A DNA stretch of 35,930 bases from Minisyncoccota bacterium (GTDB lineage Bacteria > Patescibacteriota > Minisyncoccia > Phycocordibacterales > Phycocordibacteraceae): NCBI GenBank assembly GCA_018062765.1, contig JAGORR010000003.1, positions 1-35,930 of the forward strand, read 5' to 3'. Of the stretch, positions 33,634 through 33,786 are shown piece after piece. The position numbers and the translations under genes are program-made. The notes below the pieces were generated by a model. That model saw nothing but the letters and a program-made list of their open reading frames with translations. It did not search any database and was not told the origin of the DNA. Numbering within the stretch: the stretch's first letter is position 1; the number at the start of each line of letters is the position of its first letter.

Positions 33634-33662
33634 TATGTACCACGCCTAGTATTTACTGTCAA
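33634..33662 (-). promoter_or_regulatory. Leaderless promoter of the 33627 surface gene (TTGACA, 17 nt, TACATA)
   Basis: On the minus strand TTGACA (33662-33657) and TACATA (33639-33634) are 17 nt apart; the -10 ends 6 nt before the ATG at 33627. The -35 is part of the left arm of a perfect inverted repeat. Confidence 0.82.
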
Positions 33663-33763
33663 GGGAGCACCCTTTTGATCAGTATCGCGCTATGCCGATA
33701 CTCGAACTCTCGGATAATTCGATGATTAGGAACGTCTCATAGGTAAAAGGTGCTCCCTTGACA
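33657..33763. promoter_or_regulatory. 15-bp inverted repeat shared by two divergent promoters
   Basis: TGTCAAGGGAGCACC (33657-33671) is the exact inverse of 33749-33763. Each arm reads GGTGCTCCCTTGACA toward its own gene, so it supplies a consensus -35 and nine conserved bases just upstream of it. A TTTT/AAAA extension lies at the inner edge. The 77-nt centre holds an AGTATCG/CGATACT hairpin. It looks like a duplicated regulator or sigma-factor site. Confidence 0.82.
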
Positions 33764-33786
33764 AAGCATAAGCTGTGGTGTAGCTT
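33758..33786 (+). promoter_or_regulatory. Leaderless promoter of the sortase gene (TTGACA, 17 nt, TAGCTT)
   Basis: TTGACA (33758-33763) and TAGCTT (33781-33786) are 17 nt apart; the -10 ends 8 nt before ATG 33795. It mirrors the promoter of the divergent surface gene. Confidence 0.8.

What the first reader, a model, noticed from the sequence alone, without database searches (positions are those of the whole stretch)
33634..33786. Sortase and surface-protein genes share a mirrored promoter with a 15-bp perfect inverted repeat
GGTGCTCCCTTGACA occurs twice, facing outward (33749-33763 and the inverse of 33657-33671). Each arm gives a consensus -35, a 17-nt spacer, a -10 (TAGCTT or TACATA), and a start codon 8 or 6 nt later. 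These are the best -35 boxes in the window and the bases next to them are duplicated exactly, which suggests a common activator or alternative sigma factor and joint expression of the sortase with its neighbour.
Basis: seen in the sequence. Interest (0 to 1): 0.8.

Follow-up and report, generated by a model that had tools for sequence, protein, structure and literature searches.

The report
Conserved mirrored promoter beside a sortase
In a tiny-genome Parcubacteria lineage, a sortase gene and a membrane-protein gene are driven away from each other by two back-to-back promoters that relatives keep, with a spacing that tends to change by whole turns of the DNA helix, while the 15-base repeat first noticed is a peculiarity of this one species and does not mark a set of co-regulated genes.

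Summary
In detail: GGTGCTCCCTTGACA stands at 33749-33763 (+) and 33657-33671 (-). Each copy ends in a perfect -35, then N17, a -10, and ATG 8 or 6 nt later, so both mRNAs should be (nearly) leaderless. The mirrored promoter pair is ancient: 64 distinct loci of the genus keep back-to-back TTGACA boxes, nearly all between divergent CARDB and sortase genes. The extra repeated bases (GGTGCTCC) are unique to this species, and the 15-mer occurs nowhere else in its genome or in 105 family genomes, so there is no regulon. One vegetative sigma-70 was recognised; an alternative sigma is not needed. Beyond the finding: the -35 to -35 distance (1-103 bp) clusters at 10.5-bp steps (57/64 in phase). Sister pairs (p about 0.005-0.01) and sortase loci of other families (19 loci, p=0.006; one per family p=0.03) agree; other back-to-back promoters of the order do not share this register (35/63). 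The sequence between is not conserved. Best reading: two sigma-70 promoters kept on one DNA face because one protein assembly engages both, coupling sortase and CARDB expression. Phasing is statistical; bridging is inferred. Main rival: plain compact promoters with clumped ancestry.

The parts
32806..33627 (-). CARDB-domain membrane protein gene (273 aa, one N-terminal membrane helix, no LPXTG-type C-terminus)
   Evidence: Pfam CARDB E=6e-9; translation; present in 81 of 93 genus genomes
33634..33639 (-). -10 TACATA of the CARDB promoter (TGG-extended), ATG 6 nt downstream: predicted leaderless
   Evidence: sequence; genus consensus TGgTA.atA
33657..33662 (-). -35 TTGACA of the CARDB promoter
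   Evidence: conserved in the loci compared
33657..33671 (-). left arm of the 15-bp inverted repeat (19 nt, 95% as 33657-33675)
   Evidence: beyond CTTGACA it is specific to this species
33672..33748 (.). DNA between the arms; holds a weak 7-bp inverted repeat 33681-33687/33696-33702 (shuffle p about 0.12)
33749..33763 (+). right arm of the 15-bp inverted repeat
33758..33763 (+). -35 TTGACA of the sortase promoter
33781..33786 (+). -10 TAGCTT of the sortase promoter, ATG 8 nt downstream: predicted leader 0-2 nt
   Evidence: in most relatives the ATG lies exactly 42 nt after the first base of the -35, here 37
33795..34475 (+). sortase gene (226 aa, one N-terminal membrane helix; GHS, TC and R of the sortase motif present)
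   Evidence: Pfam Sortase E=1e-20; best class model class E but far below its cut-off
33796..33809 (-). imperfect third copy of the arm (11/14) at codons 2-6 of the sortase, possibly chance

Best explanation
This is a conserved divergent promoter hub. Two sigma-70 promoters (CTTGACA, N17, TG-extended -10) stand back to back and drive (nearly) leaderless mRNAs for a CARDB membrane protein on the left and a sortase on the right. The DNA between the two -35 boxes changes freely in sequence, but its length changes mostly in whole helical turns, so both -35 boxes stay on one face of the DNA. The most likely reason is that one protein assembly (a regulator bound at the CTTGACA half-sites, or two RNA polymerases or their alpha/sigma-4 parts touching across the gap) engages both promoters and so couples expression of the two envelope genes. 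In this species the half-sites were lengthened by an inverted duplication to 15-19 bp; that lengthening is a private change, not the basis of a regulon. Shown by sequence: architecture, conservation, phasing statistics, absence of a regulon. Inferred: leaderlessness, protein bridging, co-expression.
For: Back-to-back TTGACA boxes in 64 distinct loci of the genus, nearly all CARDB<>sortase. The locus-specific pattern TTGACA-N15-TGTANNNAT occurs about once per genome or less, almost always at the sortase; the off-locus hits read are at chance level. Gaps 1-3, 9-13, 20-25, 32-35, 42-44, 52, 73-76, 93-95: R=0.61 at 10.5 bp, the highest of periods 7-15; unique gap values p=0.0008 against a smeared null. 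The gap changes often on the protein tree; 19 independent sister pairs give V=0.37, p about 0.005-0.01. With period and phase fixed beforehand, 19 sortase loci of other families give V=0.41, p=0.006 (one per family p=0.026). Other back-to-back promoters: 35/63 in phase in the order and 20/36 in the genus, against 37/41 at the sortase locus for gaps up to 30 (Fisher 1e-4 and 6e-4). C just 5' of both -35s in 75-81% of loci against 16% genome-wide, and A at -7 in both -10s, point to recognition beyond plain sigma-70. In several genomes where CARDB has moved away (G017, G088, G089, G106) the sortase -35 still faces another -35 within 3-12 bp.
Against: No regulator gene is linked and no common operator lies between the boxes. 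Out-of-phase cases exist (gaps 4, 15, 17, 25, 29, 38). With the tree cut at its coarsest (21-26 groups) the periodicity is weak (p 0.04-0.08). The phasing was noticed after the fact in the genus. Gap classes are partly inherited. In G006 and G101 the sortase promoter stands without an opposing -35. No expression data exist.
Confidence: 0.55

Rival explanations
1. Plain compaction: two strong, independent sigma-70 promoters share a short intergenic region. The apparent phasing is inherited clumping of a few gap lengths and needs no bridging protein.
For: Small genomes favour short intergenic DNA. Both promoters are near-consensus in the -35 and keep their form where the genes are unlinked (G006, G101). 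Coarse tree cuts weaken the periodicity. Back-to-back promoters are common in the order.
Against: Independent sister pairs and other families keep the 10.5-bp signal. Gaps of 4-8 bp, common at other loci (13 of 63), are absent among the 64 loci of the genus.
Confidence: 0.3
2. The duplicated 15-19-bp element is a pair of operator sites for a transcription factor of this species that controls both genes.
For: Extension of the repeat beyond the -35 is far beyond chance and sits at the same place in both promoters; a third, imperfect copy lies at the sortase start.
Against: Absent from all other loci of the genus examined. No other copy in the genome. A dedicated factor for one intergenic region in a 0.73-Mb genome is costly.
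Confidence: 0.12
3. The lengthened arms are a by-product of template switching between the two pre-existing CTTGACA inverted repeats during replication (quasipalindrome correction), without function of their own. This concerns the arms only and is compatible with the best explanation.
For: Each ortholog already has a 6-7-bp inverted repeat made of the two -35s; the arms here are identical next to it and end in an indel (AAAAGG-TGCTCC against AAAAGGGTGCTCC); species-specific.
Against: No close relative is available to show the earlier state.
Confidence: 0.5
4. An alternative sigma factor reads both promoters.
For: Both -10 boxes depart from TATAAT in the genus (A at -7).
Against: The -35, 17-nt spacer and TG extension are sigma-70-like; the one sigma recognised is vegetative; in this species the sortase -10 has T at -7. 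ECF-type sigmas and the masked 72 kb were not excluded.
Confidence: 0.06
5. The inverted repeat is the border of an invertible, phase-variable segment.
For: Perfect inverted repeat around 77 bp of intergenic DNA.
Against: Both -35s lie inside the arms and both -10s outside, so inversion would leave both promoters unchanged; the arms are absent in relatives.
Confidence: 0.02

Closest known systems
ThnR-activated divergent promoters PB/PC of the tetralin operons (PMC4834489)
   Different: There a known LysR activator binds between the promoters, sites 55 bp apart; here no regulator is known, the -35 boxes themselves face each other, often 1-13 bp apart, and the evidence is comparative, not experimental
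Bidirectional promoters of E. coli (PMC12825309)
   Same: Symmetrical DNA that drives divergent transcription and can make polymerase binding exclusive
   Different: Those are pseudo-symmetrical promoters with start sites mostly 18 bp apart; here complete promoters stand back to back by their -35s, with start sites roughly 70 bp or more apart
CPR sortase family fam000526 (PMC6744442)
   Same: A sortase reported as widespread but patchy in CPR bacteria
   Different: That paper describes the protein family; whether this sortase belongs to fam000526 was not tested
Leaderless mRNAs (e.g. mycobacteria, PMC4633059)
   Same: Start codon at or within a few nt of the predicted start of transcription
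   Different: Most relatives have a fixed short leader of about 7 nt (AGACGAT before ATG) rather than none; predicted, not mapped

Membership tests
sigma-70 promoter with extended -10 | TTGACA, 16-18 nt, TANNNT-type -10 | tested here: met
   both promoters N17; TANNNT enriched 16-18 nt after TTGACA genome-wide; the CARDB -10 ends in A instead of T
sigma-70 promoter with extended -10 | TG upstream of the -10 | tested here: met
   TGG before TACATA; TG directly before TAGCTT; conserved in genus
regulon defined by GGTGCTCCCTTGACA | same site upstream of several genes | tested here: not met
   two exact copies, both here; none elsewhere in genome, and family-wide near-matches not above control
bidirectional promoter (shared -10 symmetry) | divergent starts about 10-23 bp apart | tested here: not met
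   -10s are 141 bp apart in the window; back-to-back -35s in relatives
face-of-helix-dependent cooperative divergent promoters (ThnR type) | sites held at integral helical turns | tested here: met
   10.5-bp periodicity in the genus and in other families; moderate strength, weak at coarse tree cuts
face-of-helix-dependent cooperative divergent promoters (ThnR type) | regulator bound at both promoters and loss of cooperativity on half-turn insertion | not testable with these tools
   needs reporter and footprint experiments
invertible promoter | inversion between the repeats changes promoter direction | tested here: not met
   -35s lie in the arms and -10s outside
sortase (Pfam PF04203) | family match above cut-off with His, Cys, Arg | tested here: met
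   73.8 bits against cut-off 26.6; residues read in P0001
named sortase class (C/D/E/F) | NCBIfam subfamily cut-off | tested here: not met
   best is class E, 45.8 bits against 160
leaderless gene | 5' end of mRNA at the start codon | not testable with these tools
   predicted from -10 to ATG distance only

The most novel reading that the evidence does not exclude
The two -35 boxes form one composite element: RNA polymerases (or a regulator with CTTGACA half-sites) bind back to back and touch across integral helical turns, so that the sortase promoter works properly only with an opposing -35 on the same face, whatever gene that partner drives. This would be a new promoter architecture, kept in a lineage of uncultured bacteria and visible purely as spacing.
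Probability: 0.15. Interest if true: 0.75.

Novelty: new variant of a known kind. Interest (0 to 1): 0.5.

Why it matters
Almost nothing is known about gene control in Parcubacteria; the searches here found no transcription-start map for them. A promoter pair conserved across a genus, with spacing that follows the DNA helix, gives a concrete, testable case of coupled expression of envelope genes in organisms thought to live attached to hosts. It also shows that a spacing survey across unculturable genomes can suggest protein contacts that sequence motifs do not show.

Tried and rejected
Regulon search with the 15-mer in the own genome, 39 relatives and 106 family genomes: empty. AAGACNATATG as a general start signal: no clear excess over its control. 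TTGACA-N11-13-GTGTA as a special class: general strong promoters. Hairpin between the arms: not significant in the window (p about 0.12); a conserved palindromic block exists only in one subclade. RNA families: only matches below the gathering score, at the terminator hairpin. Shine-Dalgarno survey of own genes: 112 of 372 against 97 in the control, so 'no SD' says little here.

Full report
What was checked. The two copies of GGTGCTCCCTTGACA are at 33749-33763 (+) and 33657-33671 (-). Allowing one mismatch, the arms run to 19 nt, 69 nt apart. Each arm ends in TTGACA followed by a 17-nt spacer and a -10: TAGCTT at 33781-33786 on the right and TACATA at 33634-33639 on the left; ATG follows after 8 and 6 nt. 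TTGACA-N17-TANNN(A/T) is found at these two places only in the window. With a start 6 nt beyond the -10, both mRNAs would begin at or within about 2 nt of the ATG.

The genes. Right: a sortase (Pfam PF04203, 73.8 bits) that fits no named class at its cut-off. Left: a single-pass membrane protein with an extracytoplasmic CARDB domain and no C-terminal sorting signal. A strict pattern search of the unmasked genome found no convincing sortase substrate. The genome is a 734-kb Parcubacteria-type assembly; the nearest named contigs are Parcubacteria-group and 'Candidatus Adlerbacteria' assemblies.

The regulon idea. The 15-mer occurs nowhere else in the genome, and in 105 other family genomes matches with up to 2 mismatches do not rise above the reversed-pattern control. 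A pattern for the genus form of the sortase promoter (TTGACA-N15-TGTANNNAT) gives about one hit or fewer per genome, almost always at the sortase itself; the off-locus hits that were read have unrelated neighbours. So this is a single-locus promoter, not a regulon. The only sigma factor recognised is a complete vegetative sigma-70; a motif search of 90% of a genome cannot exclude ECF sigmas.

Conservation. CARDB is found in 81 of 93 genus genomes. In 64 distinct loci of the genus, nearly all with CARDB and sortase facing away from each other, exact TTGACA boxes stand back to back. The consensus is CTTGACA..(N)..TgGTGTAtttAT.....AAGAcgaTATG on the sortase side and CTTGACA..aAAa........TGgTA.atA on the CARDB side. 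The sortase ATG is exactly 42 nt after the first base of its -35 in most loci, which gives a leader of about 7 nt. C precedes the -35 in 75-81% of loci with gaps of at least 9 bp, against 16% of TTGACA sites genome-wide in this species. The -10s of both promoters end mostly in A rather than T; in this species only the CARDB one does.

The arms. Upstream of the two -35s the match runs 9 bases here and at most 1 in the other long-gap loci compared; the best of 506 comparisons between genomes is 7. The extension is therefore a real but private inverted duplication. It could be an operator of this species or a by-product of template switching at the pre-existing 7-bp inverted repeat; the second needs fewer assumptions.

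Spacing. The gap between the -35 boxes falls into 1-3, 9-13 (15), 20-25, 29-35, 38-44, 52, 66, 73-76, 93-95 and 103 bp. The strongest period between 7 and 15 is 10.5 bp (R=0.61). Because related genomes share gaps, three corrections were made. Unique gap values: p=0.0008 against a null smeared by +/-6 bp. Independent sister pairs on a tree of both proteins: 19 differing pairs, V=0.37, p 0.005-0.01. Clades cut at several depths: strong at shallow cuts, p 0.04-0.08 at the deepest. The pattern was found after the fact, so it was then tested with period and phase fixed on sortase loci of other families, called by an automatic promoter finder: 19 loci, V=0.41, p=0.006; one per family p=0.026. As control, back-to-back sigma-70 promoters elsewhere in the order, which are far more frequent than their reversed-pattern control, show 35 of 63 in phase, against 37 of 41 at the sortase locus in the same gap range (Fisher p=1e-4). 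The list used as control was the part of the output that was shown, typed into the script by hand, and comes mostly from other, probably AT-richer, families; a second control from the genus without a -10 filter gives 20 of 36 (p=6e-4).

Natural experiments. Where CARDB is elsewhere, G088 has a new divergent neighbour whose -35 lies 12 bp away, sister genomes G089 and G106 have one at 4 bp (out of phase), and G017 keeps a relic at 3 bp; G006 and G101 have none. So an opposing -35 is usual but not obligatory.

Mechanism. At gaps of 1-13 bp two polymerases could hardly sit on both promoters at once without contact (from general knowledge of RNA polymerase footprints), so occupancy should be coupled, either cooperatively or by exclusion. 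Flexible length, unconserved sequence between and preserved phase resemble the ThnR promoters, where half-turn insertions abolish cooperativity and full turns do not (PMC4834489). E. coli bidirectional promoters differ in geometry (PMC12825309). I take a protein assembly that touches both -35 regions on one face as most likely, and coupled expression of sortase and CARDB as its outcome; both steps are inferred.

Verdict. Observation confirmed; regulon not supported; mirrored promoter real, old and locus-specific; helical phasing is the new part and is good but not final evidence.

Noticed in passing
L007, L172, L230/L258, L241/L264 (gap 74-103 bp loci): In one subclade the DNA between the two promoters holds a conserved palindromic block (CTTCAG..TTCAGGTACCTGTAGGTA..CTGAAG; 14-bp arms in L241), weaker in L176, L217 and L006. 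It may be an operator or a small RNA.
   Followed up: partly
34566-35597 (+): A 343-aa protein with a signal peptide, without any Pfam or NCBIfam match, follows the sortase; relatives lie near the sortase in several genomes (L005, L011, L016, L019, L023).
   Followed up: no
L070 3088-3107 (G000:C2:583088-583107): A second back-to-back TTGACA pair in the same genome (gap 8, TGTCAAGCCACGGTTTGACA) beside a 131-aa unknown gene with a longer leader; the left transcript has no obvious reading frame nearby.
   Followed up: partly
order-wide: Back-to-back sigma-70 promoters (TGTCAA-N0-30-TTGACA-N16-18-TANNNT) are far above the reversed control in this order, with a sharp peak at a gap of 9 bp (13 of 63 sites).
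   Followed up: partly
L046 (- strand, index 12898) and L051 (- strand, index 15561): A transposase-like gene and a NUDIX-like gene also have ATG 6-7 nt after a -10, so predicted leaderless genes are not limited to the sortase locus; a simple survey found little Shine-Dalgarno enrichment in this genome.
   Followed up: partly
32758-32800: A long hairpin flanked by A and T runs between the gene upstream (30465-32534, GyrB-like C-terminus) and CARDB looks like a terminator for both directions; the scan tool did not list it.
   Followed up: no
G080: TGTCAAGGTGWCACCTTGACA, a palindrome, occurs at five places in one genome, which looks like a repeated element.
   Followed up: no
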